Positions 1,541 to 23,950 of a stretch of 64,000 bases of DNA are shown in pieces (positions within the stretch are counted from its first letter, which is position 1; each line of letters begins with the position of its first letter). Source of the stretch: Parvibaculaceae bacterium PLY_AMNH_Bact1 (GTDB lineage Bacteria > Pseudomonadota > Alphaproteobacteria > Parvibaculales > Parvibaculaceae); assembly GCA_032881465.1 (NCBI GenBank), contig CP126168.1, positions 2,977,501-3,041,500 on the forward strand. The letters run 5' to 3'. Under the pieces are notes generated by a model. That model did not search any database, had not been told where the DNA came from, and saw nothing but the letters and a program-made list of their open reading frames with translations. Both the position numbers and the translations under genes were made by a program.

Positions 1541-1555
1541 AGCAGGCCCCTCAGA

Positions 1556-2380
1556 TCACCGACCGGTGAACACTGGCTCTCGTTTTTCGACAAATGCCTT
1601 GGTCGCATTCTGATGGTCTTCGGTCTGACCACAATGAATATGATGGGTCGCCTCAAGGTCCATGCAGTCATTCAGATCGCCGGAAGAGATCGCGCGGTTG
1701 AGGTTCTCTTTCATATAGCGATAGGCGACAGTTGGTCCCGTTGCCAGGCGTCGCGCAATCTCTTGTGCTTTGACCTGCAGCTCTTCAGGCTCACAGACCC
1801 AGTTCGTAAGCCCCAAATCCAACGCGTCGGCCGCAGAAACACGATCAGAGAGATAATAAAGCTCCCGTGCCTTAGCCGTTCCCACGAGCTGTGTGAGGAA
1901 AAATGTTCCCCCATAGTCGCCTGAAAAACCCACCCGAGCGAAGGCGGTTGTCATCACCGCATTGCTCGCCATGATTCGCATGTCGCAAGCCAACGCGAGA
2001 CCAAGCCCGGCTCCCGCTGCGGCACCCGGAAGCGCAGCCAGAGTTGGCTTTGGCATCTCGTAGAGTTTCCCAGAGGTGCCCCGCTGATTGAGACGCTGCC
2101 GATGAATGCGGAAGTCGATTGTGTTTTCGTCCTGAGAACCATCCCCACTTGCAGCCATGCCTTTTACATCACCACCAGCACAGAAGCCCTTACCGGCACC
2201 TGTCAAAACGATGCAACGAACATCTGTATCCAGCTGCGCGGCTTCGAGCGTTGCCTGAAGCGCACCGGTCATCTCACCCGACATGGCATTGCGCGCCTCT
2301 GGCCGGTTCATTGTGAGCGTCAGCACGCCCTCATCCAGCTCGGCGAGAAGATGGTCTGTTCCTGTATCTGCAATGCTCAT
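1556..2380 (-). CDS. Enoyl-CoA hydratase/isomerase family protein (PaaG/ECI-like)
   Basis: 274-aa crotonase-fold protein. Visible motifs: CoA-binding GAGKGFCAGGD (61-71), oxyanion-hole region around PGAAAGAGLG (118-127), and FSGDYGG (152-158). True hydratases carry two glutamates; here the first position is Ala (AAAGAG) and the second is Asp155, the pattern of isomerase-type members such as PaaG (ring-1,2-epoxyphenylacetyl-CoA isomerase) or enoyl-CoA delta-isomerases. An isomerase role on an acyl-CoA is inferred; the substrate cannot be told. It stands alone on the minus strand, convergent with the small ORF at 1409. Confidence 0.8.
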   Translation of the reverse strand: MSIADTGTDHLLAELDEGVLTLTMNRPEARNAMSGEMTGALQATLEAAQLDTDVRCIVLTGAGKGFCAGGDVKGMAASGDGSQDENTIDFRIHRQRLNQRGTSGKLYEMPKPTLAALPGAAAGAGLGLALACDMRIMASNAVMTTAFARVGFSGDYGGTFFLTQLVGTAKARELYYLSDRVSAADALDLGLTNWVCEPEELQVKAQEIARRLATGPTVAYRYMKENLNRAISSGDLNDCMDLEATHHIHCGQTEDHQNATKAFVEKREPVFTGR

Positions 2381-2469
2381 GAGCGCGCTCCCGGCTTTTA
2401 TGGTTTGTTTCCCTAAACGCTAGGGCCTACGCACCATAGAGGCAACCGGGAAGCGGCATATCTACACTG

Positions 2470-3564
2470 CTATTGAGCACCCTCACCATTCCGTCGCAGA
2501 TCCGGATGCAGACTGGCTCCCAGAATGTGTTCGTTGCGTCCAATCACATGTTCTGTGTTGCCAACAATCAAGGGGTCTGGGCCGCGCACCACATGATGGT
2601 TTTTGTCCGGATAGGGCAAGGCACTCAGAAAATGCTGCATGCAATTGAGCCGCGCCCGCTTCTTGTCATTGGACTTCACGATGGTCCAGGGTGCGTCCGC
2701 CGTGTCGGTGTAGAAGAACATGGCCTCTTTGGCTTCCGTGTAGTCATTCCATTTGTTGAGTGAGGCCCGGTCAATTGGTGAAAGCTTCCACTGCTTAAGC
2801 GGGTCAACCTCTCGGGAGGCGAAGCGGCGTTTCTGCTCTTCCTGCGTAACTGAGAACCAATATTTAAAGAGACGAATGCCGCTTTGCGTCAGCATGCGTT
2901 CAAGCTCAGGAGCTTCACGCATAAACTCCAGATATTCAGTCGGTGAACAAAAGCCCATAACCCGGTCCACGCCCGCGCGGTTGTACCAGGAACGGTCAAA
3001 CATCACGATCTCACCGCCAGCTGGCAGATGCTCGATATAGCGTTGAAAAAACCATTGGGACTTCTGTCGGTCTGTCGGCTTTGGCAGCGCGACCACGCGA
3101 GCACCCCGCGGGTTGAGATGCTCCATGAACCGCTTAATCGTTCCGCCCTTACCTGCAGCATCACGGCCTTCAAACAGGACGACAATCTTCTCGTTGGTTT
3201 CCTCAACCCACTTCTGAACTTTCAGGAGCTCCACCTGCAGTTCGGCCTTATGACGTTCATAGGTGGGGCGTTTCATTTTTGTTTTGTACGGATAGGCACC
3301 GGTCTCGAAGGCATGCCGGATTGCCTCAGGATCATGCCGCATCTGCGCAAGGGTATGGAGCTGCTCACCGGTGGTCTGCTTCGGTTTTTTCTCCACCGTC
3401 TTCGCAACACGGGTGCTCTCTACCGGCGGCGCCGTGCTGGCACCCTTCTCCGGTCCGTCGACGACTCGCTCAGACGCCCCCGGAGGCGCACCCAGCACCT
3501 CAGACTCCCCTGCTGGTTTGCTTTCCAGCGCTTTCAATTCATCCCCAATGAGCTTGTCGTTCAT
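2470..3564 (-). CDS. ppk2: Polyphosphate kinase 2 family protein
   Basis: Polyphosphate:nucleotide phosphotransferase of the PPK2 family, 364 aa from the chosen start. Walker A GRDAAGKGG lies near residues 133-141 and the Walker-B/lid segment VMFDRSWYNR near 187-196, both diagnostic. PPK2 enzymes transfer phosphate between polyphosphate and nucleotides (typically making GTP or ATP). An upstream ATG at 3582 exists, but 3564 has a GGAGG at 3571-3575 at ideal spacing, so I prefer it. The first ~80 residues are a Pro/Ala/Glu-rich, probably disordered extension. A FixK/FNR-like palindrome sits about 65 bp upstream. Confidence 0.92.
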   Translation of the reverse strand: MNDKLIGDELKALESKPAGESEVLGAPPGASERVVDGPEKGASTAPPVESTRVAKTVEKKPKQTTGEQLHTLAQMRHDPEAIRHAFETGAYPYKTKMKRPTYERHKAELQVELLKVQKWVEETNEKIVVLFEGRDAAGKGGTIKRFMEHLNPRGARVVALPKPTDRQKSQWFFQRYIEHLPAGGEIVMFDRSWYNRAGVDRVMGFCSPTEYLEFMREAPELERMLTQSGIRLFKYWFSVTQEEQKRRFASREVDPLKQWKLSPIDRASLNKWNDYTEAKEAMFFYTDTADAPWTIVKSNDKKRARLNCMQHFLSALPYPDKNHHVVRGPDPLIVGNTEHVIGRNEHILGASLHPDLRRNGEGAQ

Positions 3565-3628
3565 GACCACCCTCCGTCTCATATTTCAATAAAGACATAA
3601 GGATATGTTTATATTGACATACTAGTCA

Positions 3629-3642
3629 TTGACTCAGATCAA
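3629..3642 (-). promoter_or_regulatory. Candidate FixK/FNR box upstream of ppk2
   Basis: On the minus strand this reads TTGATCTGAGTCAA, a full match to TTGA-N6-TCAA and one mismatch from TTGAT-N4-ATCAA, the consensus for FNR/FixK-type regulators. Its centre lies about 72 bp upstream of the chosen ATG; a start site near 3594 would put it at about -41.5, the class II activator position. The -10 region is not strong. Inferred oxygen-dependent control of ppk2. Confidence 0.4.
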
Positions 3643-3657
3643 GAAACAACAGCCAAC

Positions 3658-3975
3658 CTAAGTGCGGTCTCCGTAAACAATGATCAAAGCACCCAACGCC
3701 GAAACACCACCGCCAGCGAGATCCCAACGATCGGGCATTGTTCGCTCGACAACAAACATCCAAACGAGAGATGCCACGATGTAGATCCCACCATAGGCCG
3801 CATACGCCCGCCCGGCGAAGGCGCTATCGACCTTCGTCAGTAGAAAAGCAAAAAGAACGAGAAGCACAACACCTGGTGCTAGCCACCAGCTGCTCTGTCC
3901 GTCTCGGGCCCAAGCCCAGATTGCAAAGCACCCAGCAATCTCTGCTGCAGCGGCGGCCACGTAGAAGCCATTCAT
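3658..3975 (-). CDS. YnfA/UPF0060 family small membrane protein
   Basis: 105-aa protein with four hydrophobic segments and the family-typical beginning ([12 protein letters not shown]) and later [13 protein letters not shown]. YnfA proteins are small multidrug-resistance-like membrane proteins of uncertain substrate. The frame extends upstream to 4071, but ATG 3975 overlaps the stop of the preceding gene as ATGA and gives the usual family length. It is the third gene of the operon driven by the MerR-type promoter at 4646-4676, which suggests a metal or efflux role, but this is inference. Confidence 0.85.
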
Positions 3976-4211
3976 CGGGCGGCCTGCGAATTTGAGCGAC
4001 CACGCCACCAGCGATACAGAGCGAAGGACCCCAGTAAGACAATGAACGGAATCAAGACAAAGTCGAGCCAAGCCAAGTCAAACCATGTAGGCAGGTAAGC
4101 CAGAACACCTGCTCCAAACATCACCACCAACACTGGCGGCAGCGCGCAGAGCACGACACCAAACACCGCCCCCAGCGCCGCCCGTCTGCCTGTTTGATCA
4201 AGCCCACTCAT
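3972..4211 (-). CDS. MerF-like small membrane protein lacking the cysteine pairs
   Basis: 79 aa, two hydrophobic segments (about 11-38 and 47-66). The stretch [20 protein letters not shown] resembles the first helix of the mercury transporter MerF (LCCFTPVLVILLG), but the vicinal Cys pair is reduced to one Cys (C22) and the C-terminal Cys pair is absent. Start ATG at 4211 overlaps the upstream stop (ATGA), and its own stop overlaps the YnfA start the same way. It may be a divergent metal or metalloid permease component, or only structurally similar. Confidence 0.6.
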
Positions 4212-4612
4212 GCGCCAACTACAAACTCATCGGAAAGGCTGCGCACAAGCACCCCGAGCACCTCCTGTTCAGCGGTGAGTGTCAACAGAACTTCATTGCC
4301 TTCGACCCTCACATCCCAGGACACATGCGCACAGCAAACCTGTTCCAGCTTCACCAGATCTTGAAGTTCGGCGTCCAGCTCCGCGCTCTGCAAAAAACGA
4401 AACACAGCATGGTCAGGTCGGCGGTCATAGCCCAGCATCTGTCCAAACAGTACCTGCCACCTGCCAAGCCGTTCTGGCATCTCTGCCGGATTCAGCGTGC
4501 ACCCAGCATCCACTATTTCGTTTGCCGACACACCGCCGCAACAAGACTTGTCGATGGCGCAGCTTGGCCCCTCGTTCTCATTTGTAGAAGCTATCTCTGT
4601 TTTCTCGTCCAT
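4208..4612 (-). CDS. Cys-rich hypothetical protein with two CC motifs
   Basis: 134 aa, first gene of the MerR-driven operon. Six cysteines: C18, the pair C24-C25 (DKSCCGG), C38 and the pair C93-C94 in LEQVCCAHVSWDV. I recall small proteins of the pattern 'LERxCCPFxxF' near mer- and MerR-type regulators, but I know no established function. No signal peptide or membrane helix, so cytoplasmic. An AGGGA sits 8 nt before ATG 4612. Metal binding by the CC pairs is an inference from cysteine spacing and promoter context. Confidence 0.7.
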   Translation of the reverse strand: MDEKTEIASTNENEGPSCAIDKSCCGGVSANEIVDAGCTLNPAEMPERLGRWQVLFGQMLGYDRRPDHAVFRFLQSAELDAELQDLVKLEQVCCAHVSWDVRVEGNEVLLTLTAEQEVLGVLVRSLSDEFVVGA

Positions 4613-4645
4613 AGCCGGCGTCCCTATTTTGTTGACCCGGCGCCC

Positions 4646-4676
4646 ACCCTAATTGTTAAAGTAAACTTTAAGTCAA
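4646..4676 (-). promoter_or_regulatory. MerR-type promoter with operator palindrome
   Basis: On the minus strand: -35 TTGACT (4676-4671), a 19-bp spacer (4670-4652) and -10 TAGGGT (4651-4646). Centred in the spacer is a perfect inverted repeat TTAAAGT-N2-ACTTTAA (plus-strand 4656-4671). A long 19-20 bp spacer with a central dyad is the hallmark of promoters untwisted by MerR-family activators. It drives the operon 4612-3658 and lies between it and the divergent merR gene. Confidence 0.8.
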
Positions 4677-4703
4677 GAGGGTTTTGTGAATCAGGAGAGA
4701 CAC

Positions 4704-5117
4704 ATGTCAGATCTGACGATTGGAGCTGTCGCCAAGGAAACCGGCCTCAACACATCATCCATTCGCTACTACGAATCCATCGGCCTGCTGCCTCCAGCAC
4801 CGCGCAAAAGCGGGCGACGCCTCTACGACCCCAGCGTGATCGATCGCTTGCGCATCATCGAAGCAGCAAAAGCCCTCGACTTCACATTGGATGAGATGAA
4901 ACTCTTCTTTGAAGGCGTGTCAGAAACGAGCCCTCCAAGCAAGGTATGGCGCGCCTTTGCCGACACAAAGCTTGATGCCATCGAAAAGCAGATTGCCCAC
5001 GCCCAATCCTTGCAGCGCATTTTGAAGATGGGTCTGACTTGTGAATGCCTGAAGCTGAGCGATTGCATGCCCGTCGGGCCTGAACCTGGTTGGAACCCAA
5101 ACTGCCGCCCAGTTTAA
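4704..5117 (+). CDS. MerR family transcriptional regulator (metal/redox type)
   Basis: 137 aa. N-terminal winged HTH (TIGAVAKETGLNTSSIRYYE, residues 5-24), then the dimerisation coiled coil (about 80-112) and a C-terminal cysteine cluster C113, C115, C121 plus C134. The CxCLxxxDC spacing looks like SoxR's last three cluster cysteines, but SoxR's first Cys is absent, and so is the dimer-helix Cys of MerR/ZntR. A GTG exists at 4686, but ATG 4704 has a better ribosome site (CAGGAGAGACAC). Divergent from the three-gene operon whose promoter it presumably controls. Confidence 0.88.
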   Translation: MSDLTIGAVAKETGLNTSSIRYYESIGLLPPAPRKSGRRLYDPSVIDRLRIIEAAKALDFTLDEMKLFFEGVSETSPPSKVWRAFADTKLDAIEKQIAHAQSLQRILKMGLTCECLKLSDCMPVGPEPGWNPNCRPV

Positions 5118-5118
5118 C

Positions 5119-5190
5119 CTAATCCAGAACCTCGACAATGACGAGAGAGGCATCCGGAATGGACGCCGCCACGTCAGCGCCCGCTGAACC
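5119..5190 (-). pseudogene. Possible remnant of an alpha/beta-hydrolase C-terminus
   Basis: A short minus-strand frame ending in TAG (5121-5119) reads VAASIPDASLVIVEVLD. The intact alpha/beta hydrolase 650 bp away has MAASIPNGTLVIVEGED near its C-terminus. There is an in-frame stop just upstream and no room for a full gene. It looks like the stub left by a lost duplicate, but it is very short and could be chance. Confidence 0.25.
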
Positions 5191-5277
5191 TGCCTATACT
5201 TGCGAGAGTTTGGACAGAGCCCCTATGTTGCGTGCACTTAACGCTTTTAGGGCCCCGGCCCCTGGCCGTCGAACAAC

Positions 5278-5661
5278 CTAGCCTCTAGCAGCGACCGCTT
5301 GTTCAATTGCAGACTTCACCTTGCCCAAATGAACCATGTCTTTGGAAGTCAATGCCTGCGTGTCGCCACTAGCTGTCCTGATGACCAGGTGATGTTTGGG
5401 TTGAGCAGAATACAATAACCAACCGATTCCAGATGCTATTCCAAGAGTCACCAGACCAACCAGAACCTCACCGGCGCTTAGGAGACTCCATCCAAATAGT
5501 GCGAGGACAACAACTACAATCCAGAAGAAAACACTTTTGCTTTCCTCTTTGACGATCGAAATCGAGCCGATCCCATTTATTGGATAGGAAGTACCACTGA
5601 TAGTCGCCATCGTCTTCGTGACAGAGATACTGCCTTGTTGGAAAATCGTCTCATCATCCAT
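5278..5661 (-). CDS. DUF6232-like membrane protein
   Basis: 127 aa. A short N-terminal beta-rich part (TIFQQGSISVTKTMATISGT) is followed by two hydrophobic helices (about 44-62 and 65-84) and a C-terminal soluble tail (HLVIRTASGDTQALTS). This layout, with a TYPINGI-type strand before the helices, fits the DUF6232 family as I remember it; function unknown. It stands alone; no operon partner. Confidence 0.6.
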   Translation of the reverse strand: MDDETIFQQGSISVTKTMATISGTSYPINGIGSISIVKEESKSVFFWIVVVVLALFGWSLLSAGEVLVGLVTLGIASGIGWLLYSAQPKHHLVIRTASGDTQALTSKDMVHLGKVKSAIEQAVAARG

Positions 5662-5779
5662 GTACTAATCTCCATCGAACAACCCGAGAAGGATAATAGG
5701 CATTTTACCCGAGTATCAAGCTTAAACCCGAGAGGCCCCTAAAAAGGAACACCTGCAACCTCGCCCCCTCTGCCAATCC

Positions 5780-6658
5780 CTACCTCAGAAACTCGACAAT
5801 GCGCGGCGTGACCTTTTCCGGCGCCATCAATGGCGCGAAGTGGTCTTCACCTTCAACAATCACTAGTGTCCCGTTTGGAATAGATGCTGCCATCTCCCGC
5901 GTATGCGTTTCTTTGATGGAATCAAACTCCCCCGCCATGACGAGCGTAGGGCTTGAAACTCCTCCAAGGTCACCAACCGTGAAGGTCGGCTGGGTATCCC
6001 ACATGGTCATGAGCTTGCCGTGAAACACCGGCCAGTGGTCTGGGTCCGGCGCGACGGACTGATAGAAGGAGCGCACAACCTCCCAACTCGGATCGTCCGG
6101 TGAAGAATTAATGCCTTCGCCTTCTTCATCAGGCACCAGACCATTCGTGTGAAAGTTGGAGCCGTAGGTCACAAGCTTTCCCACACGGGTAGGATAGCGG
6201 ATCGCCATATCGAGCCCGATATTGCCCCCATCACTCCACCCGACAATGTCGGCCTTCTGAAGTCCCAGATGATCCATCAACGCGATCATATCATCTGCCA
6301 TTTGCGCGTAGGAAAGGGGTACACCCTCAGCATCACTCGTCCGCCCATGGGCGCGACTGTCTGGTGCCACCACAAAATGGTCTTCAGTCAATGCGGTGAT
6401 CTGATTGTGCATGGTCTCAATAAATGCACTTCCACCGTGCAGCACCAGGACGGGCGAGCCCTCACTATGGGTTTCCCCATAGGTTTCGTAATAGAGCGAG
6501 ATGTCGTTGATATCGACACGGACCTCGTCCTGGACGTTCCCCGGGATCAGCTTCCAAGCATAGAAACCAACAATGCCATTGCTCGTGCGGTCAAGGTAGA
6601 CAAACACACCCGCGCAGAGCGTTATCAGCACACCCAAACCCAACAGAAATTTATTCAT
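5780..6658 (-). CDS. Membrane-anchored alpha/beta hydrolase
   Basis: 292 aa. An N-terminal hydrophobic segment (residues 2-20, uncleaved anchor or signal) precedes an alpha/beta hydrolase fold: oxyanion region VLHGGSA, nucleophile elbow GWSDGG (Ser), and catalytic His in GEDHFAP near the C-terminus; the Asp is likely in AGEFDSI. Substrate unknown. ATG 6658 is chosen over the GTG at 6679 because GGGAGG lies about 9 nt upstream of it. A short similar fragment lies at 5119-5190. Confidence 0.85.
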   Translation of the reverse strand: MNKFLLGLGVLITLCAGVFVYLDRTSNGIVGFYAWKLIPGNVQDEVRVDINDISLYYETYGETHSEGSPVLVLHGGSAFIETMHNQITALTEDHFVVAPDSRAHGRTSDAEGVPLSYAQMADDMIALMDHLGLQKADIVGWSDGGNIGLDMAIRYPTRVGKLVTYGSNFHTNGLVPDEEGEGINSSPDDPSWEVVRSFYQSVAPDPDHWPVFHGKLMTMWDTQPTFTVGDLGGVSSPTLVMAGEFDSIKETHTREMAASIPNGTLVIVEGEDHFAPLMAPEKVTPRIVEFLR

Positions 6659-6785
6659 GATCGCTACCTCCCAGTTCACCTGAGCTTACGCCCCTCCGCT
6701 CAAAACCCAAGATCCAATCGATCTACATCGGGGAACCGAACCTCATTAGACCACGAGCATTCCCGTCCGGGGATAAGAGACACAC

Positions 6786-6815
6786 AAAAAAAGGGCCGTG
6801 CGCCAGGCACAGCCC
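6786..6815 (-). terminator. Rho-independent terminator of clpB
   Basis: On the minus strand a 9-bp stem (GGGCTGTGC / GCACGGCCC, one G-T pair) with a 5-nt loop is followed by seven T residues. It lies about 27 nt after the clpB stop. Confidence 0.9.
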
Positions 6816-6841
6816 TTCTTCACGCCCTAACGAGTGATAAT

Positions 6842-9445
6842 TTACTCAGCTGCCTGCGCGGCAATTGCTCGGCCATTGATCACAAGACCATCAGGCCCTG
6901 CAGAAACAGGCACCGTCTCGCCATCCTTCACCACGCCTTCCAACAGCAAGTCCGCAAGCGGGTCCTGCACATTGCGCTGAATGACCCGCTTCAAAGGCCG
7001 CGCCCCATAAACCGGGTCATAGCCTTTATCCGCAAGCCAGCTGCGCGCTGCTTCGTCCAGTTCCAGAACAATCTTCCGGTCGACGAGCAATGCATCAAGA
7101 CGCTGCATCTGAATGTCGACAATGCCGTCCATCTGCTCCCGCGTGAGACGATGAAATAGCAAAATCTCATCCAGCCGGTTCAGGAACTCAGGCCGGAAGC
7201 GGCTACGCACCACATCCATCACCTGGTCCCGCACAGCCTCTGTATCATCACCTGCCTCCTGGTCAGCAAGGAATTCAGAGCCGAGATTGGAGGTCATGAT
7301 GATGAGCGTATTCTTGAAGTCGACCGTGCGGCCCTGCCCGTCTGTCAGACGGCCATCATCAAGCACCTGCAACAACACATTGAAGACATCCGGATGGGCT
7401 TTCTCGATCTCATCAAAAAGCACCACCTGATAAGGCCGCCGCCGCACTGCCTCGGTGAGCGCACCACCTTCCTCATAGCCAACATAGCCCGGAGGCGCCC
7501 CGATGAGACGCGAGACAGAATGTTTCTCCATATATTCCGACATGTCGAGACGACAAATCGCCTGGTCATCATCGAAGAGGAAGTCCGCAAGCGTCTTGGT
7601 GAGCTCCGTCTTACCGACACCGGTGGGCCCGAGGAACATGAAGGACCCGATCGGCCGTGATGGATCTTGAAGACCCGCACGGGACCGGCGAACGGCCCGC
7701 GACACAGCGCTCACAGCTTCTGCCTGTCCGATGACGCGCGCAGATAGCTCCTTCTCCATCTCAAGCAGCTTCTCACGCTCGCCTTCCAGCATCTTATCGA
7801 CCGGAATACCCGTCCAGCGGGAGACGACTTGCGCCACATGGCTCGCAGTCACGGTCTCTTCGACCATGCCCTCACCTGGTTCCGCGTCTTCACTTTCAGA
7901 CAGTCGCTTCTCAAGCTCTGGGATCACACCGTAAGAGAGCTCACTCGCCCGCTCCAGATTGCCACTCCGTTGGGCCTGGACAAGCTCGTTACGCGCCGCA
8001 TCCAGTTCCTCTTGAACTTTCTGCGCCTGGCCGAGCTTATCTTTCTCCCGCTGCCAGACGGATGTGACGGACGCAGACTTAGACTCAAGATCCGCGAGAT
8101 CTGATTCGAGTTTCTCCAGCCGGTCCTTGCTGGCGCTGTCGGTTTCTTTCTTCAGCGCCTCCCGCTCTATCTTGAGCTGAATGATGCGCCGATCAAGTTC
8201 GTCCAGTTCCTCTGGCTTGCTGTCCACCTGCATCCGCAACCGACTGCCCGCCTCGTCCATCAGGTCAATGGCCTTGTCAGGCAGGAAGCGATCCGAAATA
8301 TAGCGGTCCGACAGGGTCGCGGATGAGACAAGCGCCGCATCAGAAATCCGAACCCCATGGTGGAGCTCATATTTCTCTTTCAGGCCACGCAGAATGGAGA
8401 TCGTATCTTCCACCGTCGGCTCTTCCACCATGACAGGCTGGAACCGGCGGGCAAGTGCGGCATCTTTTTCCACATGTTTGCGATACTCATCAAGCGTTGT
8501 CGCGCCCACACAGTGAAGTTCACCACGTGCTAGTGCTGGCTTGAGCAAATTGGACGCATCCATCGCCCCGTCTGTTTTGCCCGCACCCACAAGCGTATGC
8601 ATCTCATCAATGAAGAGAATGATCCCGCCATCAGCCGAACTCACTTCACTCAGCACCGCTTTCAGGCGCTCTTCAAATTCACCGCGATATTTTGCACCGG
8701 CGATCAGCGCACCCATGTCGAGGGACAGGAGCTTTTTGTCCCGCAAGCTTTCGGGCACATCTCCATCAACGATTCGCAGCGCCAGGCCTTCCGCGATGGC
8801 GGTCTTACCCACGCCGGGCTCGCCAATGAGCACCGGATTATTTTTCGTCCGACGCGACAAGACCTGCACGGAGCGACGAATCTCTTCATCCCGCCCGATG
8901 ACCGGATCAAGCTTGCCGTTTTCTGCATCTTCAGTGAGGTCTCGCGCATATTTTTTGAGCGCATCATAGGCGTCTTCCGCCGATGCACTGTCCGCTGTTC
9001 GTCCTTTGCGCACTGAATTAATTGCCTCGTTGAGAGCCTGCGCTGTCACGCCGGCATTTTTCAAAATACCAGCTGATGCTGCGCCTTGTTCAATGGCCAA
9101 GGCCAGCAATAGTCGCTCAGCGGTTACATAGGAATCGCCAGCCTTTTTGGCGACCTGTTCCGCCTGGTCGAAAACGCGAGCAGTTTCTGGTGCGAGATAA
9201 ATCTGACCCGCGCCATCCCCTTCAACTTTGGGCATCTTGCCAAGCTCAAGCTCAACCGCTTCAAGCGCCGCGTCAGGCCGACCACCGGCCGCACGGATGA
9301 GATTGGCCGCCAGGCCTTCTTCATCATCCAATAAAACTTTGAGAAGATGTTCCGGTGTGAACCGCTGATGTCCGGAACGCAATGCCAGCCCCTGCGCTGA
9401 CTGAACGAAGCCGCGGCTTCGGTCTGTATATTTTTCAAGATCCAT
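6842..9445 (-). CDS. clpB: ATP-dependent chaperone ClpB
   Basis: 867-aa Hsp100 disaggregase that, with DnaK, extracts polypeptides from aggregates in the cytoplasm. Visible: Clp N-domain (2-150), AAA1 with Walker A GEPGVGKT, the long ClpB middle coiled coil (about 400-530, rich in Glu/Lys), AAA2 with GPTGVGKT and the sensor motif GARPLKR. The frame opens at 9502, but the family start [12 protein letters not shown] is at 9445, after a G-rich ribosome site. Followed by a strong terminator. No convincing sigma-32 promoter was found by eye. Confidence 0.97.
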
Positions 9446-9747
9446 CTGGACCCCCATTTCAAGCACGCACCGCTTGCCCCATTTGCCAAACTGGCAGGCC
9501 ACAAACGTACGCCTCAGCCATCTAACCGTCGGAACACTGAACCCAGAGCCCGCTAGGCGAAATGGCTTAGATCAAGACCAAACGCGATTGCACGGGCAGA
9601 AGTATGCCGCACAAACCGTTGACGACCTTCTTATGAAGCATCGACTTGAAATATATGGGTGTGACATCCGGGCAACACAAGAGGAAGCCCAGATCAATCA
9701 TCAAAAAAATCGCTGAAACCAGCCGTAAAAGCCGAACACGCGCCGAA
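9446..9747. other. Intergenic region between DUF4167 gene and clpB
   Basis: About 300 bp with no supported gene; short open frames here have no ribosome site or recognisable product. It must hold the clpB promoter, but I could not find a clear -35/-10 or heat-shock promoter pair. Confidence 0.5.
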
Positions 9748-10317
9748 TTACGCGGGCACGTCTTCTGATGCAGGCTTGTCATCGCCCCCATCTGAATCTG
9801 AGTCAGATTTGGCTTTGGCTGGAGCGCGCCGACGCCGGGGAGCCCGACGACGTGGGGCTGGTTTTTCTTCCCCATCACCATCAGCCGCATCGCTTTCAGC
9901 AACGGCCTCTTCAGTCTCAGGTTTCTCAGCTACCTCTGCGGCAGTCTGATCGTCTGCACCGGAATCTTCACCATTCGCCCGGCCATTGCCGCCCCGAGCC
10001 TGACCTTCACGACCTTGGCCATCACGGCCTTGGTTGTCCTGACGGTTCTGGCTTTCTTGGCGATTCTGTTCCTGCTGCGCCTGAGCAGCAACAATCAGCC
10101 GGTGATAATGCTCGGCATGCTGGAAATAGCTTTCCGACGCAATGCGGTCACCCGACGACTGCGCATCACGCGCCAGCGCCTGATACTTCTCGTAAATATG
10201 GCTCGCCGTGCCACGGATTTTTACGTCCGGCCCGTTGCTTTCCATACTCCGGCTAAGGGGATTTTGTGGTTTGCGTCCGCGCCCACGAGAGCGCTTCTGG
10301 TTTTGGCCCTGCCTCAT
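9748..10317 (-). CDS. DUF4167 domain protein
   Basis: 189 aa. The N-terminal ~85 residues are the conserved DUF4167 core (basic RGRGRKPQNPLSRS, then NGPDVKIRGTA and HAEHYHRL), typical of alphaproteobacteria. The remainder is low complexity: Gln/Asn/Arg-rich, then acidic, ending in an Arg/Ala-rich tail (APRRRRAPAK). Basic ends suggest nucleic-acid binding; function unestablished. Start ATG 10317 preferred over 10359: CGGAG is just upstream and the family begins MRQGQN. Neighbours prmC-prfA and clpB are the usual ones for this family. Confidence 0.88.
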   Translation of the reverse strand: MRQGQNQKRSRGRGRKPQNPLSRSMESNGPDVKIRGTASHIYEKYQALARDAQSSGDRIASESYFQHAEHYHRLIVAAQAQQEQNRQESQNRQDNQGRDGQGREGQARGGNGRANGEDSGADDQTAAEVAEKPETEEAVAESDAADGDGEEKPAPRRRAPRRRRAPAKAKSDSDSDGGDDKPASEDVPA

Positions 10318-10717
10318 ATCACTCCGGCTCTGTTTACCAGTTGAAAATACACCGTCCATAGCGACCCAGCGGCTCGTTTCTGCGCATCTGCAGACAAAGC
10401 CACAAGACTAAATCTCGCCAGGACTAAGCGATTGCCCTTCTATGTGTGCCCGTTTTAAAGGCCTACACACTGACCCAACCCATGCTCAACACGCCCCATC
10501 AACAGACGGGACAGAAGTCATGAAAGAATGTTCCAGACGCTCAAGCTACAATTTCCACAGCTAGATGACGTCCAATGGGGCTTGCCACCATATTCTGCCC
10601 CTGCCCCTCATCTCCAGCCAAACCGGTCCCTACCGGCAGCGAAATGTGTCTAGAGGCTTGATTCTCTTCAAGGAACCTACCCTCTGAGCGCTCCATGTCC
10701 AAATGTTTTTTTGGATT
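10318..10717. other. Intergenic region upstream of the DUF4167 gene
   Basis: 400 bp between prmC and the DUF4167 gene. I see no ORF with a ribosome site, no tRNA-like fold and no hairpin with a T tract; a promoter for the DUF4167 gene is expected but none stands out. Confidence 0.5.
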
Positions 10718-11593
10718 TCACATTCCGCGTTTCACCTTGAGGACCCTGGGAATACCCGCAAGGTCTGAATGAAGCCCACAAACCTCAAGGCCCACACCTG
10801 CTGCAATCCCGGATACATCGTCCGACTGCCCAATACCCAGCTCCCAAAAGGCCACCCCCGCCGGGGCTAAAAGGCGCTGTGTTTCCCGCGCGATCTCCTG
10901 ATACGCGGTCAGGCCATCATCGCCCCCATCCAGGGCAGTCATGGGATCATGCTCCCGCACTTCCTGCGACAAGCCAGCAATATCAGCCGACGGGATATAG
11001 GGAGGATTTGAAACAATCAGATCAAAGGGGCGGTCCAGCCCTGCGCCCCAATTGCCAATGCTGAACGTCACCCGATCTGCAAGACCAAGCTGTTCTGCAT
11101 TATGCGTCGCCGCCTCGACGGCTTCGGGAGCACAATCAATGCCGCGCCCTCGCGCATTTGGTAGTTCGGAGAGTAGTGCCAACAGCAAACATCCCGTCCC
11201 GGTCCCCAAATCAAGAATACTGCTGGGAGCCCCCCTCGCCGTCACATGATCAAGAACCGCCTCCACCAATGTCTCACTGTCTGGGCGCGGATCCAGCGTC
11301 GCACCATTGAGTGAGAAGGTGAGGCCCCAGAATTCACGATGACCCAAAATGCGCGAAACAGGTTCACCAGAAAGGCGGCGGTCCACATAGGCCTTCAATA
11401 GTTCAAGGCTTGGATCAGCAATCAACTGATCGGGATCAGCAATCAGCGCGACTTCATCGACCTGCGTCGCTGCGGCCATGAGAAGCCGCGCGTCGAGCTC
11501 GGCGGAAGGAATATCGGCAGCGCGAAACTGGTCAAGAAGATCACGATAGACGACACCTCGCGGCACAGCGCCTGGATGCCCGTCGGCACTCAC
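10718..11593 (-). CDS. prmC: Release factor glutamine methyltransferase PrmC
   Basis: 291 aa. Methylates the Gln of the GGQ motif in class 1 release factors. N-terminal helical domain (to ~90), then a SAM-dependent methyltransferase domain with motif [16 protein letters not shown] and the diagnostic [13 protein letters not shown] start at 11593 overlaps the prfA stop as GTGA, so it is translationally coupled to its own substrate's gene, a common arrangement. Confidence 0.96.
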
Positions 11594-19379: not shown

Positions 19380-20144
19380 GTGATCGACGTTGCTCAAAGC
19401 CCGACATCTAGCGTCGATAAGGACGAAATCGCCCGTTTTTCAGCCATGGCAGCCGAATGGTGGGATCCGAAAGGAAAATTCGCGCCACTGCACAAATTTA
19501 ATCCAACGCGCCTGGCCTTCATAAGAGAACGTGTTGTCGATCACTTTGGCCTGGAGTCAGCAAAAACTGCGCCATTCGAGGGCCTCTCCTTGCTGGACAT
19601 AGGCTGCGGTGGCGGTCTCTTGAGCGAACCCATGACCCGCCTTGGGGCAAGCGTGATCGGGGCTGACGCGGGCGACGCAAACATCAAGACCGCCAGCGTC
19701 CATGCGCAAGAACAGGGCCTCAATATTGACTACCGCGTCACCACTGCAGAAGAGCTTGCTGCAAGCGGTGCCCAATTCGACATCATTTTGAACATGGAAG
19801 TGATCGAGCATGTGGCAGACCGTGATGGGTTCCTCGTCTCCTGCTCTCAGATGCTGAAACCCGGCGGCATCCTTTTTTGCGCAACCCTCAACCGGTCATT
19901 GAAAGCCTTTGGTCTCGCAATCGTGGGGGCTGAATATGTCCTGCGCTGGCTTCCTCGCGGAACCCACGATTGGAACAAGTTCATCACACCCGCTGAGCTT
20001 TTCAAAAGCATTGAGCGCACAGGTCTCGAAGTCACCGAAGAGACCGGCGTGACTTACAATCCGCTATCTGACCGCTGGTCGCTTTCAACCGACATGGGCG
20101 TCAACTATATGATGGTGGCAACCAAACCAAAGCCCACCCCATGA
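19380..20144 (+). CDS. ubiG: Ubiquinone biosynthesis O-methyltransferase UbiG
   Basis: 254 aa. SAM-dependent methyltransferase for both O-methylations in ubiquinone synthesis. Diagnostic [20 protein letters not shown] and NPTRLAFI near the N-terminus; motif [16 protein letters not shown]; membrane-associating loop [17 protein letters not shown] start at 19380 with AGGAG 8 nt upstream. Its stop overlaps the following tetR start (ATGA). Confidence 0.96.
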
Positions 20145-20779
20145 CCGACCCGAACATTGACCTGGAGCCAAAAAACAAGCCGCGTCAGAAACGCGCCATA
20201 GAGACCTATGAGCGAGTTCTGGACGTTGCGGCTCGTTTGCTTGAGGAAGAAGGGGTGGAGCGCATCTCCACCAATCTGATAGCTGAAAAAGCCGAAATCA
20301 CCCCTCCCACTCTCTATCGCTACTTCCCAAACAAATATGCGGTTCTGCGCGCGCTGGGCGATCGGCTCATGCAAGAGCAGAATGAAATTTTCGAACGGTT
20401 TTTGACCGATGCCGGGGACAGCATCGAGGCCCAAATCGAGGGAACCTACGAAAACCTGATGGAAACACTCCGAGTGACCGAACAGCACCCAGGCGGTCTC
20501 TCGATCATGCGCGCCCTTCGTGCCGTCCCAACGCTGCAGCAGGTCCGGCTTGCCTCCCACCATCAGGTGACCGACGAATGGGCCGAGCATCTGAGCACAC
20601 TTTTCCCCAAAATCCCCAAGGCGGAGCTCTGGATTAAAGCACGCCTGACTGTCGATATCGGGTATGCCGCCATCGAAATGGCGATGGAAGAGCAGGCAAT
20701 CTCCTCTGAGACGGTACTCCGGGAGGCCACAACGGCCATTACCGCCTATTGGCAGCAAGTCATCTCCATTTCTAAATAA
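20141..20779 (+). CDS. TetR family transcriptional regulator
   Basis: 212 aa. N-terminal TetR HTH (about 16-62: [13 protein letters not shown]-like turn and [17 protein letters not shown]), then an all-helical ligand domain. Overlaps ubiG by 4 nt, so it is co-transcribed with it. Its stop codon falls inside the left arm of a long palindrome that abuts the promoter of the next operon, so it very likely represses that cassette. Inducer unknown. Confidence 0.9.
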
Positions 20780-20828
20780 TAGTCATAACTATTATTTAGT
20801 TGACCCCTGGGCACAAATGGGCTTTTAT
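20772..20828 (+). promoter_or_regulatory. TetR operator palindrome plus promoter for the cyt c/oxidase operon
   Basis: A perfect inverted repeat with 12-bp arms (CTAAATAATAGT / ACTATTATTTAG) and a 4-nt centre occupies 20772-20799. It abuts a -35 TTGACC (20800-20805) followed by a 17-bp spacer and -10 TTTTAT (20823-20828). Repressor bound here would block RNA polymerase. The left arm includes the TetR stop codon. An alternative is an AT-rich terminator hairpin, but there is no T tract after it. Confidence 0.7.
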
Positions 20829-20866
20829 GTGCGGGCTGCACCATCGCTGCACATAGGGGACACGCA

Positions 20867-21259
20867 ATGAAACCGGCCATATTGGGCGCAAAAGCCCTTC
20901 TGCTCGCAACCGCTATGGGCCTTGCCGCCTGCGGTGAGGCGCCTCAATCCGCCGAAGAACGGGCAGCAATCATCGCTGCTGCCGAAACACGGGTGCCGAG
21001 CGACGCTGTCCTTGCCGAAAAATATGAGCGCGCCTGCCAGGCCTGTCACGCTGACCCGGAAAACGGCGCACCCCTCTCTGGAGATGTGAGAGCATGGACG
21101 CCACGGATGGAGGCACGTGGCACAGAAGGCCTTCTGCAAAGCACGCTCAACGGGTTTGAAGGCATGCCACCGCTCGGCGCCTGCCCCGATTGCGGCATAG
21201 ACGATTTTGAAAACCTGATTGCCTTTATGGCCACAAATGAAAACGGGGAAGAGAAATGA
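20867..21259 (+). CDS. Class I cytochrome c lipoprotein (c5-like)
   Basis: 130 aa. Signal peptide with lipobox LAAC (Cys22), so probably anchored to a membrane facing the periplasm. Haem-binding CQACH at 57-61; likely axial Met in GFEGMPP; an extra Cys pair in GACPDCG as in cytochrome c5. Stop overlaps the oxidase gene start (ATGA), so it is the probable electron acceptor of that oxidase. Confidence 0.88.
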   Translation: MKPAILGAKALLLATAMGLAACGEAPQSAEERAAIIAAAETRVPSDAVLAEKYERACQACHADPENGAPLSGDVRAWTPRMEARGTEGLLQSTLNGFEGMPPLGACPDCGIDDFENLIAFMATNENGEEK

Positions 21260-22638
21260 GCCTCAGCCGACGTGAGATGATGATGCAGGGCGCCGCGGTT
21301 GCAGCGCTCGCGACCGGAAAGCCTTTCTCTGCTTTCGCAGAAACACCAGCCAAAACGCAAGAACAGCGGATCAAGTGGCAGAACTGGTCAGGCGGTCAAA
21401 GCTGCCTGCCTGAAGCAAGACTTGCTCCGGCCACTGCGGCTGAAGTGGCTGAGATCATCGCGACCAGTACAAAACCCATCCGGCCGGTGGGAACCGGGCA
21501 CTCCTTTACGGCTCTAGTCCCTACCGACGGCACCATCATGTCCCTCGACCGTTTAAGCGGTGTTTTAGAGACAAACGACGAGACCATGGAAGCAACGGTG
21601 GGGGCCGGAAGCAAGCTTGGCGACCTTGGCGCTCCGCTGGAAGAAAAAGGCCAGGCGCTCATCAACATGCCCGACATCAACCGCCAAACACTGGCGGGCT
21701 CTATTTCCACATCGACCCATGGCACAGGTGAGAACTTCGGCTCACTCTCAAGCTACGTCACCGGTCTCGAGCTCGTGAGCGCCGCAGGCGAGACAATCTG
21801 GTGCGACAAGGATCAACAGCCAGACCTCTTTCAGGCAGCACGCGTCTCTCTCGGGTCACTCGGCATCATCACAAAAATTCGCCTACAAAACCGCACGCCC
21901 CACCGCATCAACAAGCGTACCTGGGTTGTGCCCTTCGATGAGATGATGGAACAAGCCGACACATTCGCGGCAGAGAACCGTAATTTTGAATTCTACTACA
22001 TTCCCTTCTCATCCATGTGTATGGGGATCAGCCACAACGAGACAGACGAACCTCTCGCCCCCTCCAGTGCCGAAGACGATGACGGTGTCATGACCCTAAA
22101 AGCGCTCGCTGACTATTTGGGCTGGGCACCATCGCTTCGCGAATATTTCATCCGGTCTGCCCTTGAGGATCTGCCGGAAGAGACGTTCGTCGACACCTCC
22201 TGGAAGGTCTATCCAAGCGACCGCAATGTGCGCTTCAACGAAATGGAGTACCACCTGCCGCGGGAAAACGCGCTTGCTGCACTCAAAGAGATACGCACGC
22301 TCGTTGAAGGAGAGAATATTGATCTCTTCTTCCCTTGGGAGTTCCGATATGTGAAGTCAGACGACATCTGGCTTTCTCCCTTTCAAGGACGAGAAAGCTG
22401 CTCCATCGCCATTCACAGATATTACGAAGAAGACTACAAACCGCTCTTCTCAGCAGTAGAACCCATTCTGCAGAAACATGGCGGCCGTCCGCACTGGGGC
22501 AAGCTGCACACGCTGAAAGCACCAGATTTCGCGACGCTCTATCCAAACTGGAATGACTTCTTGACTGTCCGGCAAGCGATGGATCCAGACGGCGTGTTTC
22601 TGAACGACCATTTGAGGGAGGTATTCGGCCTTGCATGA
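21256..22638 (+). CDS. Tat-exported FAD-linked sugar-lactone oxidase (D-arabinono-1,4-lactone oxidase family)
   Basis: 460 aa. N-terminal twin-arginine signal (LSRREMMMQGAAVAALATG), FAD_binding_4 domain (about 45-215) with GTGHSFTALV, where the His is the usual site of covalent FAD attachment, and a C-terminal ALO domain ending in RPHWGKLHTL. Members oxidise aldono-lactones or alditols. Export with its cofactor through Tat and its coupling to a cytochrome c lipoprotein suggest a periplasmic dehydrogenase feeding the respiratory chain rather than an oxygen-using oxidase. Substrate unknown. Confidence 0.88.
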   Translation: MSLSRREMMMQGAAVAALATGKPFSAFAETPAKTQEQRIKWQNWSGGQSCLPEARLAPATAAEVAEIIATSTKPIRPVGTGHSFTALVPTDGTIMSLDRLSGVLETNDETMEATVGAGSKLGDLGAPLEEKGQALINMPDINRQTLAGSISTSTHGTGENFGSLSSYVTGLELVSAAGETIWCDKDQQPDLFQAARVSLGSLGIITKIRLQNRTPHRINKRTWVVPFDEMMEQADTFAAENRNFEFYYIPFSSMCMGISHNETDEPLAPSSAEDDDGVMTLKALADYLGWAPSLREYFIRSALEDLPEETFVDTSWKVYPSDRNVRFNEMEYHLPRENALAALKEIRTLVEGENIDLFFPWEFRYVKSDDIWLSPFQGRESCSIAIHRYYEEDYKPLFSAVEPILQKHGGRPHWGKLHTLKAPDFATLYPNWNDFLTVRQAMDPDGVFLNDHLREVFGLA

Positions 22639-23950
22639 TCTCCTCAATCAGCTGAAATCTCGTTTCAATGGCTTGAGCAGGCGCTCACTCATACTGGGGA
22701 GCGGCGGCATCGCAACGCTTGGTCTGTTGGCACTATCACGGCCGGCAAAAGAAGGCGGGCCTATTGAGCCATATTTCGAAAAGCTCGGAGCCGCAGTGTC
22801 TGAGAAAGGGCTGGCGCGCCCCACCCTTGTGGTTGATCTCGCCCGCCTCGATCAGAACATTGAAGTGATGAAATCACATCTGCGACCGGACATGGGATAC
22901 CGCATTGTCGCGAAATCACTGCCATCATTGCCACTCATTCGCCATGTCATGGCAGCCGCTGACACGAACAAGCTGATGCTGTTTCATCAGCCTTTCGTCA
23001 ATCTGGTGGCAGAAAAAGAACCAAGCGCCGACGTGCTTTTGGGAAAACCCATGCCGGTTGGGGCCGCCGCTCGTTTCTATGACGAGCTGGGACCAACATC
23101 CTTTGACTCTTCCACACAATTGCAATGGCTCATCGACACACCGGAACGGCTCGCAGAATATCAAGATCTCGCGAACGCCCGTGGACAAGCAATGCGCATC
23201 AACTTGGAGTTGGATGTGGGCCTGCATCGGGGCGGTCTCACTGATCCGGCAACATTGAAACCCATCCTGGAAACCATTGACGCAGATCCACTGCTCACCT
23301 TCTCCGGCTTCATGGGCTATGACCCCCACCTGGCATCTGTGCCGGATCTCATGGGCTGGCAGGGACGGGCGATTGAAACCTCAATGGACATCTACAAGGC
23401 ATTTGTCGATGCTGCGGCTGAGCACTATGGAGACGACTGGAAACCGAAAGAGCTCACCCTCAATACCGCTGGCAGTCCCACCTACCAGCTCCACAAGGAG
23501 ACAATGCATGCCAATGAAGTTGCTGTTGGCTCCGCTCTTGTAAAGCCCACCCATTTCGATGTCTCGACACTGTCAGACCATGTGCCAGCGAGCTTCATCA
23601 CAACACCGGTCGTGAAGACTGCAGAGCGCACGGATATTCCAGGCCTTGAAGCACTTACAGGCCCGACCCGCCTCTGGGACCGGAACACGGCACAGACCTT
23701 CTTCATCTATGGCGGCAATTGGCTGGCAGAGCCAGTCTCGCCACCGGGCCTACGCACCAATGGCGTGTTTGGCCGGTCCAGCAATCAGGAAATGTTGAAC
23801 GGATCAGACATGATCGACCTCGCCGCGAACGACACGGTCGTTCTGCGTCCAACACAAAGCGAATTTGTCTTTCTACAATTTGGTGACATTCAAGTATTTG
23901 ATGGCGGAAAGATCACTGAAAGCTGGCCCGTCTTTACGCAGGGGGCATAA
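22631..23950 (+). CDS. Tat-exported DSD1/D-threonine-aldolase-like PLP-fold protein
   Basis: 439 aa. Twin-arginine-like signal (LSRRSLILGSGGIATLGLLAL), then an alanine-racemase-type barrel with the PLP lysine in RIVAKSLPS and a Ser/Gly phosphate region (LNTAGSPTY). TTG start at 22631 overlaps the oxidase gene by 8 nt and has GGGAGG 9 nt upstream. D-threonine aldolases and D-serine dehydratases carry a PSHxC metal site near the C-terminus; here the position reads LRPTQSEFVF, so the metal ligands are missing. Reaction unknown; perhaps racemase-like. Confidence 0.8.
   Translation: MHDLLNQLKSRFNGLSRRSLILGSGGIATLGLLALSRPAKEGGPIEPYFEKLGAAVSEKGLARPTLVVDLARLDQNIEVMKSHLRPDMGYRIVAKSLPSLPLIRHVMAAADTNKLMLFHQPFVNLVAEKEPSADVLLGKPMPVGAAARFYDELGPTSFDSSTQLQWLIDTPERLAEYQDLANARGQAMRINLELDVGLHRGGLTDPATLKPILETIDADPLLTFSGFMGYDPHLASVPDLMGWQGRAIETSMDIYKAFVDAAAEHYGDDWKPKELTLNTAGSPTYQLHKETMHANEVAVGSALVKPTHFDVSTLSDHVPASFITTPVVKTAERTDIPGLEALTGPTRLWDRNTAQTFFIYGGNWLAEPVSPPGLRTNGVFGRSSNQEMLNGSDMIDLAANDTVVLRPTQSEFVFLQFGDIQVFDGGKITESWPVFTQGA

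What the first reader, a model, noticed from the sequence alone, without database searches (positions are those of the whole stretch)
20141..23950. TetR-governed, Tat-exported oxidase / PLP-fold / cytochrome c cassette
cyt c lipoprotein, FAD sugar-lactone oxidase and alanine-racemase-like PLP protein are chained by overlaps (21256-21259, 22631-22638). Both enzymes carry twin-arginine signals, which means cofactor-loaded export. A periplasmic PLP-fold protein beside a lactone oxidase is unusual and suggests a periplasmic oxidation pathway delivering electrons to cytochrome c.
Basis: partly seen in the sequence, partly recalled or inferred. Interest (0 to 1): 0.6.

Follow-up and report, generated by a model that had tools for sequence, protein, structure and literature searches.

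The report
Sphingosine-oxidising gene cassette with own switch
A marine-type bacterium carries a relative of the three-gene set that Pseudomonas uses to get rid of sphingosine, an antimicrobial lipid base, here next to a different regulatory gene and a matching DNA switch, which suggests that lipid-base breakdown reaches well beyond Pseudomonas and makes its unexplained third protein testable.

Summary
Window 20141-23950 encodes a TetR regulator, a cytochrome c lipoprotein, a Tat-signalled FAD oxidase (ALO family) and a Tat-signalled fold-III PLP protein, chained by overlaps. The trio is not unusual: it matches sphBCD of Pseudomonas aeruginosa (43/48/49% identity, same order), a sphingosine-induced operon whose first two genes are needed to deplete sphingosine. 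The PLP protein lies beside the oxidase in 78 of 80 named loci. The window genome encodes a full-length neutral ceramidase, and two other loci carry a ceramidase directly beside the pair. The substrate is therefore most likely a sphingoid base, not a sugar lactone. New here: (1) TetR stands in place of SphR, with a 28-bp perfect palindrome before the cassette, whose core recurs upstream of the cassette in 9 of 80 loci; (2) the PLP protein folds like D-threonine aldolase, not alanine racemase, but lacks that enzyme's metal pair and base histidine and carries an invariant Q-x-E, so its published 'aldolase' label is unproven; (3) oxidase and PLP protein mostly share their export state (105 of 111 loci). 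The chemistry (C1 oxidation, then cleavage) is inferred; it was proposed in print in 2014, and I found no demonstration.

The parts
20141..20779 (+). TetR-family regulator, probable local repressor of the cassette (stands in the place of SphR)
   Evidence: PF00440 E 6e-14, PF17918; homologue beside the cassette in 10 of 80 named loci at E <= 3e-35
20772..20799 (.). 28-bp perfect inverted repeat (12-bp arms, 4-bp spacer), candidate TetR operator; core ATAGTNNNNACTAT at 20779-20792
   Evidence: the 16-base form has one exact place in the 3.74-Mb genome; both arms change together in L040
20800..20828 (+). possible promoter, TTGACC-N17-TTTTAT, directly after the palindrome
   Evidence: read by eye, also seen in L038-L040; the consensus scan, which requires A at position 2 of the second hexamer, reported none, so weak
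20867..21259 (+). SphB-like cytochrome c lipoprotein, presumed electron acceptor
   Evidence: PF13442 E 1.1e-11; 43% identity over 106 positions to the P. aeruginosa cyt c5-family protein
21256..22638 (+). SphC-like Tat-signalled FAD oxidoreductase (ALO/alditol oxidase family)
   Evidence: 48% identity over 425 positions to P. aeruginosa SphC; H82, E362, R364, K416 in 24 of 24 rows; AF2 model resembles GALDH and alditol oxidase
22631..23950 (+). SphD-like Tat-signalled fold-III PLP protein with non-canonical active site (Q409-x-E411)
   Evidence: 49% identity over 403 positions to P. aeruginosa SphD; AF2 pLDDT 87.8, best match D-threonine aldolase 4v15 Z 34.1; residues

Best explanation
This is an alphaproteobacterial sphBCD-type cassette for oxidising free sphingoid bases (sphingosine and kin) in the periplasm. 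The ceramidase encoded elsewhere in the genome, probably secreted, releases the base from exogenous ceramide. The FAD enzyme (SphC-like) oxidises the base, most plausibly at the C1 alcohol, and passes electrons to the lipoprotein cytochrome c (SphB-like). The PLP protein (SphD-like) then acts on the C1-oxidised 2-amino-3-hydroxy product, most plausibly splitting C2-C3 into a C2 amine (glycine or glycinal) and a long-chain aldehyde. Oxidising C1 of natural (2S) sphingosine gives a D-configured amino acid or aldehyde, which fits a relative of D-specific enzymes. TetR represses the unit by binding the palindrome before it, and is released by a sphingoid base or product. SHOWN here: gene content, conservation, homology to sphBCD, palindrome, ceramidase gene. 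SHOWN by others in P. aeruginosa: sphBC are needed to deplete sphingosine, and SphC is a Tat substrate. INFERRED: substrate in this organism, site of oxidation, SphD reaction, TetR binding and ligand.
For: Same order and families as PA5328-5326 sphBCD (PMC5150637 passages) and as an annotated P. aeruginosa record next to sphR; identities 43/48/49%. P. aeruginosa SphC finds the window oxidase as its best match in this genome, 441.9 bits against 313 for a paralogue. sphBC-dependent sphingosine loss in P. aeruginosa (PMC11893366 abstract, passages, sections 20 and 22). Full-length neutral ceramidase in the own genome, 535 bits, in 0 of 14 control genomes. Ceramidase in 8 of 61 relatives, all 8 with the PLP gene, which 12 of 61 have. 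Ceramidase directly beside the pair in L061 and L101. No serine palmitoyltransferase-like gene seen: the only two TIGR01825 matches look like BioF and ALAS, so the substrate is probably exogenous. AldO-type active-site residues invariant in 24 of 24 rows. Palindrome recurrent at the cassette and associated with TetR.
Against: I found no biochemistry for SphC or SphD; the 2025 authors state that direct action is unproven, and sphD was dispensable for growth. C. crescentus sphBC did not significantly rescue a P. aeruginosa mutant. SphD-like proteins lack the metal and base residues of D-threonine aldolase. Most cassette genomes lack a strong ceramidase match: 11 of 15 in the class draw (one of these, G209, has a weak partial match) and 20 of 23 in the phylum draw. 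11 of the 12 relatives with SphD lie in one family. Hyphomonadaceae-type loci have no cytochrome c match beside the pair. The oxidase tree does not resolve one-to-one orthology: the signal-less own-genome paralogue falls on a long branch with L101 inside the group that holds P. aeruginosa SphC, and the window oxidase lies outside that group. In the genome-wide motif search the control pattern had more places (6) than the motif within one mismatch (2), so only the exact site and its recurrence count.
Confidence: 0.72

Rival explanations
1. A periplasmic sugar or alditol/aldonolactone oxidation pathway: the ALO enzyme oxidises a polyol or lactone and the PLP protein handles an unrelated amino compound.
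For: The oxidase is in the ALO family, with solved relatives acting on alditols and L-galactonolactone.
Against: It scores below the curated cut-off of the sugar-lactone oxidase model TIGR01678 (227.8 against 396.8). Its homologue in P. aeruginosa is induced by sphingosine and needed for its removal. Of 20 neighbouring proteins scanned from other loci, 2 are ceramidases; I saw no clear sugar-pathway enzyme, only one MFS transporter with a side match to Sugar_tr.
Confidence: 0.1
2. Reversed order: the PLP protein cleaves sphingosine itself by retro-aldol chemistry, as S1P lyase does with S1P, to ethanolamine and hexadecenal, and SphC oxidises the toxic aldehyde.
For: PLP retro-aldol cleavage needs no carboxylate (S1P lyase, recalled). 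An aldehyde dehydrogenase gene lies divergently next to the cassette in 29 of 80 loci, all Pseudomonas by title.
Against: In P. aeruginosa sphC mutants keep sphingosine while sphD is dispensable, so SphC appears to act first.
Confidence: 0.08
3. SphC oxidises C3 or the amine carbon rather than C1, and SphD is an epimerase, transaminase or dehydratase rather than a lyase.
For: SphD lacks the metal pair and base histidine of D-threonine aldolase and carries an invariant Q409-x-E411 with D/E at 231.
Against: Alditol oxidase relatives oxidise terminal primary alcohols (recalled), and their active-site residues are kept; the nearest solved folds are aldolases and dehydratases of D-configured hydroxy amino acids.
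Confidence: 0.25
4. Chance neighbours with no common function.
For: Nothing beyond the lack of biochemistry.
Confidence: 0.01

Closest known systems
sphBCD operon of Pseudomonas aeruginosa (PA5328-PA5326)
   Same: Same three families in the same order, 43/48/49% identity, lipoprotein cyt c, Tat-signalled oxidase; a neutral ceramidase in the genome in both (cerN in P. aeruginosa; PF04734 here).
   Different: TetR plus palindrome at the locus instead of the AraC-type SphR; no SphA-like porin match in the 17-kb same-genus loci L038-L042; SphD of this genus has a longer N-terminal extension; the ceramidase gene is far from the cassette.
D-threonine aldolase / D-3-hydroxyaspartate aldolase / D-serine dehydratase (PLP fold type III)
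   Same: Fold (Z 31-34), PLP lysine K95, R200.
   Different: Metal pair H-x-D and base His not kept (T/H and others at 408, S/T at 410, variable 236); invariant Q409 and E411; export signal.
Alditol oxidase AldO and L-galactono-1,4-lactone dehydrogenase (ALO family)
   Same: FAD_binding_4 + ALO domains, invariant H82, E362, R364, K416 aligning with AldO's FAD-linking His and active-site Glu/Arg/Lys (AldO roles and numbers recalled).
   Different: Tat signal, cytochrome c partner, PLP partner; 21-26% identity in the fold search.
Sphingosine-1-phosphate lyase pathway (recalled)
   Same: Would also end in a long-chain aldehyde and a small amine.
   Different: Fold-I PLP enzyme on a phosphorylated base inside cells; here oxidation would come first and no phosphorylation is proposed.

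Membership tests
sphBCD operon | cyt c (PF13442) - ALO oxidase (PF04030) - Ala_racemase_N protein (PF01168), in this order, one strand | tested here: met
sphBCD operon | sequence homology of all three proteins to the P. aeruginosa ones | tested here: met
   43%, 48%, 49% identity
sphBCD operon | one-to-one orthology of the oxidase by tree | tested here: inconclusive
   best match in the genome, but the tree puts a long-branched paralogue nearer to P. aeruginosa SphC
sphBCD operon | control by SphR | tested here: inconclusive
   No SphR-like protein at E <= 1e-6 in the 17-kb loci of the five same-genus relatives L038-L042; the whole own genome was not searched for it. TetR is there instead.
sphBCD operon | sphingosine depletion | not testable with these tools
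   needs culture work
D-threonine aldolase | fold | tested here: met
   4v15 Z 34.1, rmsd 2.4 over 344; alanine racemases 24-28
D-threonine aldolase | PLP lysine | tested here: met
   K95 in 30 of 30 SphD rows and in the same column as Lys in 8 of 8 aldolase-like relatives
D-threonine aldolase | metal pair H-x-D near the C-terminus (role recalled) | tested here: not met
   8 of 8 aldolase-like relatives read PHCDP; the SphD set has His at 408 in 8 of 30 and Asp at 410 in 0 of 30
D-threonine aldolase | catalytic base His193 (number recalled) | tested here: not met
   His in 8 of 8 aldolase-like relatives, in 0 of 30 SphD rows at position 236
Alanine racemase | closest to alanine racemase structures and over the alr model cut-off | tested here: not met
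   aldolases and dehydratases rank clearly higher; NCBIfam alr 12.3 bits against a cut-off of 168
ALO / alditol oxidase family | FAD_binding_4 + ALO domains, His for covalent FAD, E/R/K active site | tested here: met
   covalent FAD itself not testable
Sugar 1,4-lactone oxidase (TIGR01678) | score over the curated cut-off | tested here: not met
   227.8 against 396.8 bits
Tat substrates | RR motif plus hydrophobic stretch; Tat machinery in the genome | tested here: met
   P. aeruginosa SphC is listed as a Tat substrate in PMC6085387 (passage); export itself not tested
TetR-regulated unit | TetR binds the palindrome | not testable with these tools
   only sequence conservation

The most novel reading that the evidence does not exclude
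SphD founds a new catalytic type within PLP fold III: an exported lyase, without the D-threonine aldolase metal site, that splits C1-oxidised sphingoid bases with its own Q-x-E/Asp active site. With SphC and SphB it forms a phosphate-free, respiration-linked counterpart of the sphingosine kinase/S1P lyase route, spread over Alpha- and Gammaproteobacteria under interchangeable regulators (TetR with its own operator, or SphR).
Probability: 0.25. Interest if true: 0.75.

Novelty: new variant of a known kind. Interest (0 to 1): 0.5.

Why it matters
Sphingoid bases are antimicrobial lipids of skin, airway and plant surfaces, and how bacteria break them down is open: the product of the sphBCD route is unidentified and orthology outside Pseudomonas was left undecided (PMC11893366, sections 20 and 22). 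SphD beside SphC, with a ceramidase where present, offers a marker for true systems. The palindrome gives a simple reporter for the inducing ligand. The odd SphD active site turns the 'aldolase' label into a testable claim.

Tried and rejected
Rejected: sugar-lactone pathway as the main reading; alanine racemase as the nearest family; chance neighbourhood. The C1-oxidation-plus-cleavage idea came to me before I read the literature (note), but LaBauve and Wargo had published it in 2014 (passage), so it is not claimed as new; the stereochemical argument and the active-site mismatch are mine, and I met neither in the passages read.

Led nowhere or spoke against: the consensus promoter scan of 20700-20900 found nothing. 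In the genome-wide motif search (16-base form, one mismatch allowed) the motif had 2 places and the reversed control pattern 6, so the motif is not enriched in the genome; the 14-base core was searched exactly only in the window and the fetched loci. R. pomeroyi has a TetR gene ahead of its trio, but the similarity covers only the DNA-binding part and no operator match lies there. L042 and L048 have TetR but no site within one mismatch, and L055 has a site but no TetR seen. The oxidase tree does not settle orthology. Ceramidase co-occurrence is significant but thin outside one family: in the phylum draw 3 of 5 strong ceramidase genomes have SphD against 23 of 398 overall (p 0.0016); leaving out the window genome, 2 of 4 against 22 of 397, p 0.016, and 2 of 6 counting the weak matches, p 0.038. 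Most cassette genomes lack a strong ceramidase. In the fold comparison one annotated D-serine deaminase (3gwq, Z 26.3) scores as low as the alanine racemases. Two long rows (L146 in the PLP tree, the paralogue in the oxidase tree) have unsure places.

Mistake: the oxidase tree used the wrong reading frame of L006 (a neighbouring gene) as paralogue. That tree is discarded and was redone; the PLP tree is unaffected.
Full report
WHAT IS THERE. The four genes are as described. The TetR gene overlaps the 3' end of a ubiG-like methyltransferase gene by 4 bp. The cytochrome c, oxidase and PLP genes form a tight unit that starts 87 bp after the TetR stop codon. Both enzymes carry a twin-arginine motif followed by a hydrophobic stretch, the cytochrome a lipobox and one CxxCH. 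The genome (one contig, 3.74 Mb) has a TatC. The closest named loci are titled Rhodobiaceae and other alphaproteobacterial assemblies.

CONSERVATION. A scan of named genomes with the PLP protein returned 80 loci (178 relatives found, the best 80 kept). An oxidase relative lies beside it in 78 of 80 and a cytochrome c relative next to the pair in 65 of 80, at E <= 1e-6. The two without an oxidase are L053 and L109, the latter a 5.7-kb contig. By record titles the loci span Rhodobiaceae, Hyphomonadaceae, Rhodobacterales, Sphingomonadaceae, Pseudomonas (most of them) and other Gammaproteobacteria; some titles of assembled metagenomes may be wrong. In whole-genome draws a PLP match at E <= 1e-40 occurs in 15 of 385 genomes of the class and 23 of 398 of the phylum.

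IDENTITY. In 26 of the 80 loci, all titled Pseudomonas, the trio is followed by an SphA-like porin gene (PF13557) on the other strand, and an SphR-like AraC regulator (PF12625 + PF12833) is found in 29 (families; a few of the SphR matches are weak). Many other Pseudomonas loci have the trio without these two beside it. An annotated P. aeruginosa record shows cytochrome c5 - D-arabinono-1,4-lactone oxidase - DSD1 family PLP enzyme - transporter - sphR - argB. Two papers, read as passages, name PA5328-PA5326 sphBCD and give the same three kinds of protein in the same order (PMC5150637; PMC3900636). Window proteins are 43%, 48% and 49% identical to those of that record. P. aeruginosa SphC finds the window oxidase first in this genome (441.9 bits), ahead of a signal-less paralogue (313 bits). 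The oxidase tree does not settle one-to-one orthology, because that paralogue, on a long branch, falls with L101 in the group holding P. aeruginosa SphC while the window oxidase lies outside it. The PLP protein is the better marker: the own genome has only one other match to it, at 25% identity.

FUNCTION KNOWN FOR sphBCD. PMC11893366 (abstract, passages, sections 20 and 22): sphB and sphC are needed for full growth with, and loss of, sphingosine, and sphD is dispensable in those conditions. The product was not found and direct action is unproven. C. crescentus sphBC gave no significant rescue, and the two organisms that carry sphBC without sphD showed little or no effect of deletion. PMC12323605 (passages) repeats that sphingosine metabolism requires sphB and sphC. 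[quoted passage not shown] PMC6085387 (passage) lists SphC as a Tat substrate; PA5326 (SphD) does not occur in its main text.

CERAMIDASE. The own genome has one full-length neutral ceramidase (535 bits, profile 1-509), a family found in none of 14 control genomes; by eye its N-terminus looks like a signal peptide. Among 61 relatives, 8 have a ceramidase and all 8 have the PLP gene, which 12 of 61 have (one as a fragment). Seven of the 8 are one genus, so this is not independent evidence. In the class draw 12 of 385 genomes match; the four full-length ceramidases all lie in cassette genomes of one family, the other eight matches are weaker and partial (one of them, G209, in a cassette genome), and 11 of 15 cassette genomes lack a strong one. 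In the phylum draw 7 of 398 match, 5 strongly; 3 of these 5, in three families, have SphD against 23 of 398 (p 0.0016; without the window genome 2 of 4, p 0.016). Independently, in L061 a ceramidase (542 bits) follows the PLP gene by about 150 bp on the other strand, and in L101 a ceramidase (303.9 bits) directly precedes the oxidase with an SphR-like regulator beside it. TIGR01825 finds only two genes in the own genome: one sits among what look like biotin genes and resembles bioF, the other resembles 5-aminolevulinate synthase (named from context and recall). So no serine palmitoyltransferase was seen, and the bases are probably taken from outside.

REGULATION. Directly before the cassette lies a perfect 28-bp inverted repeat, 20772-20799 (12-bp arms), overlapping the TetR stop codon and abutting TTGACC at 20800. 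Its core ATAGTNNNNACTAT is the only exact match in the window (0.01 expected). The 16-base form AATAGTNNNNACTATT has one exact place in the genome and one more with a mismatch, while the reversed control pattern has 6 places: the site is single, but the motif as such is not rarer or commoner than chance there. The telling point is recurrence: sites within one mismatch lie upstream of the cassette in L038, L039, L040, L041, L052, L055, L056, L062 and L104, titled Rhodobiaceae, Hyphomonadaceae, Sphingomonadaceae, Rhodobacterales, Ruegeria or just Alphaproteobacteria, and apart from copies of the window's own site only 4 other places within one mismatch were seen in 1.5 Mb of fetched sequence. 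In L040 both arms have changed together. TetR and site go together in 8 of 80 loci; TetR alone in 2, site alone in 1, neither in 69 (p 1.4e-8, not corrected for relatedness). The promoter scan did not support the -35/-10 reading. The simplest reading is local repression by TetR of this unit, in place of activation by SphR.

PLP PROTEIN. The AF2 model (30-row alignment A3, pLDDT 87.8) matches D-threonine aldolase 4v15 (Z 34.1, rmsd 2.4, 344 aligned) and hydroxyaspartate aldolase 6qkb (Z 34.0). Dehydratases of the same group score 31-33, alanine racemases 24-28, and one annotated D-serine deaminase 26. Compared with eight aldolase-like relatives from unnamed related genomes (8 of the 18 loci L020-L037; called so from their motif, not family-scanned), the PLP lysine K95 and R200 are kept in 30 of 30 rows. 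The metal motif, PHCDP in 8 of 8 relatives, reads P-x-Q-S/T-E here: His at 408 in 8 of 30, Asp at 410 in 0 of 30, with Q409 and E411 in 30 of 30. The base histidine column (236) has His in 8 of 8 relatives and 0 of 30 here. So it is not filed as a D-threonine aldolase; it may still work like one by another route.

OXIDASE. The AF2 model (24-row alignment A4, pLDDT 86.9) matches L-galactonolactone dehydrogenase and alditol oxidases. H82, E362, R364 and K416, which align with AldO's FAD-linking His and active-site Glu, Arg and Lys (AldO roles and numbers recalled; index offset 4), are invariant in 24 of 24. Alditol oxidases act on a terminal CH2OH next to a carbon bearing a hetero-atom (recalled), which is the C1-C2 unit of a sphingoid base. 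By the usual priority rules, turning C1 of (2S)-sphingosine into an aldehyde or acid makes C2 D-configured (own inference), which suits a relative of D-specific enzymes.

EXPORT. Of 111 loci with both proteins, 95 have RR signals on both, 10 on neither, 4 on the oxidase only and 2 on the PLP protein only; those two have a cut or partial oxidase reading frame (a simple pattern test for RR signals only, some genomes counted twice, four loci with a lone PLP gene left out). So the two proteins tend to share a compartment. Signal-less pairs occur in several lineages, which suggests that the pair can work without a Tat signal.

VERDICT. A real, conserved cassette, already known in Pseudomonas as sphBCD, here in a form with TetR and a palindrome, in a genome with a ceramidase. 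Paper searches (listings only; one search showed 8 of 79 hits and 20 of 38) showed no paper on such a TetR-linked form; only open-licence papers are held. The new parts are the regulator and palindrome, the wider distribution with ceramidase, and the finding that the SphD active site is not that of the aldolase it is called.

Noticed in passing
L006 640-1947 (own genome, about 1698001-1699290): A second SphC-like oxidase (41% to P. aeruginosa SphC) without any export signal, next to a gene that looks like a DUF1329 protein (named from recall).
   Followed up: partly
L141-L144, L157, L158, L161-L167, L043: Oxidase-PLP pairs in which the PLP protein, and except in L141-L144 the oxidase too, lacks an RR export signal; several are in 5.6-7-Mb genomes of one family.
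   Followed up: partly
L065 4357-5982 and 28 other Pseudomonas loci: An aldehyde dehydrogenase gene lies divergently right next to the cassette (29 of 80 loci), which would suit a long-chain aldehyde product.
   Followed up: no
L147 (Yoonia sp. plasmid) 1-11131: SphD-like gene (41%) among genes annotated 2,4-dienoyl-CoA reductase, enoyl-CoA hydratase, AMP-binding protein and a lactone oxidase, as if the lipid tail went on to beta-oxidation.
   Followed up: no
L145 (NZ_CP070468.1): A P. aeruginosa record labelled plasmid carries a run of what look like core chromosomal genes (rph, pyrE, argB, dut) with sphBCD; it may be a chromosome segment.
   Followed up: no
L061 9434-13160: Ceramidase gene next to a PhoD-like phosphatase gene beside the cassette.
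   Followed up: no
L146 2539-3195: R. pomeroyi megaplasmid has TetR - cyt c - oxidase - PLP, but with a TetR similar only in its DNA-binding part and without the palindrome: a second TetR may have been recruited independently.
   Followed up: partly
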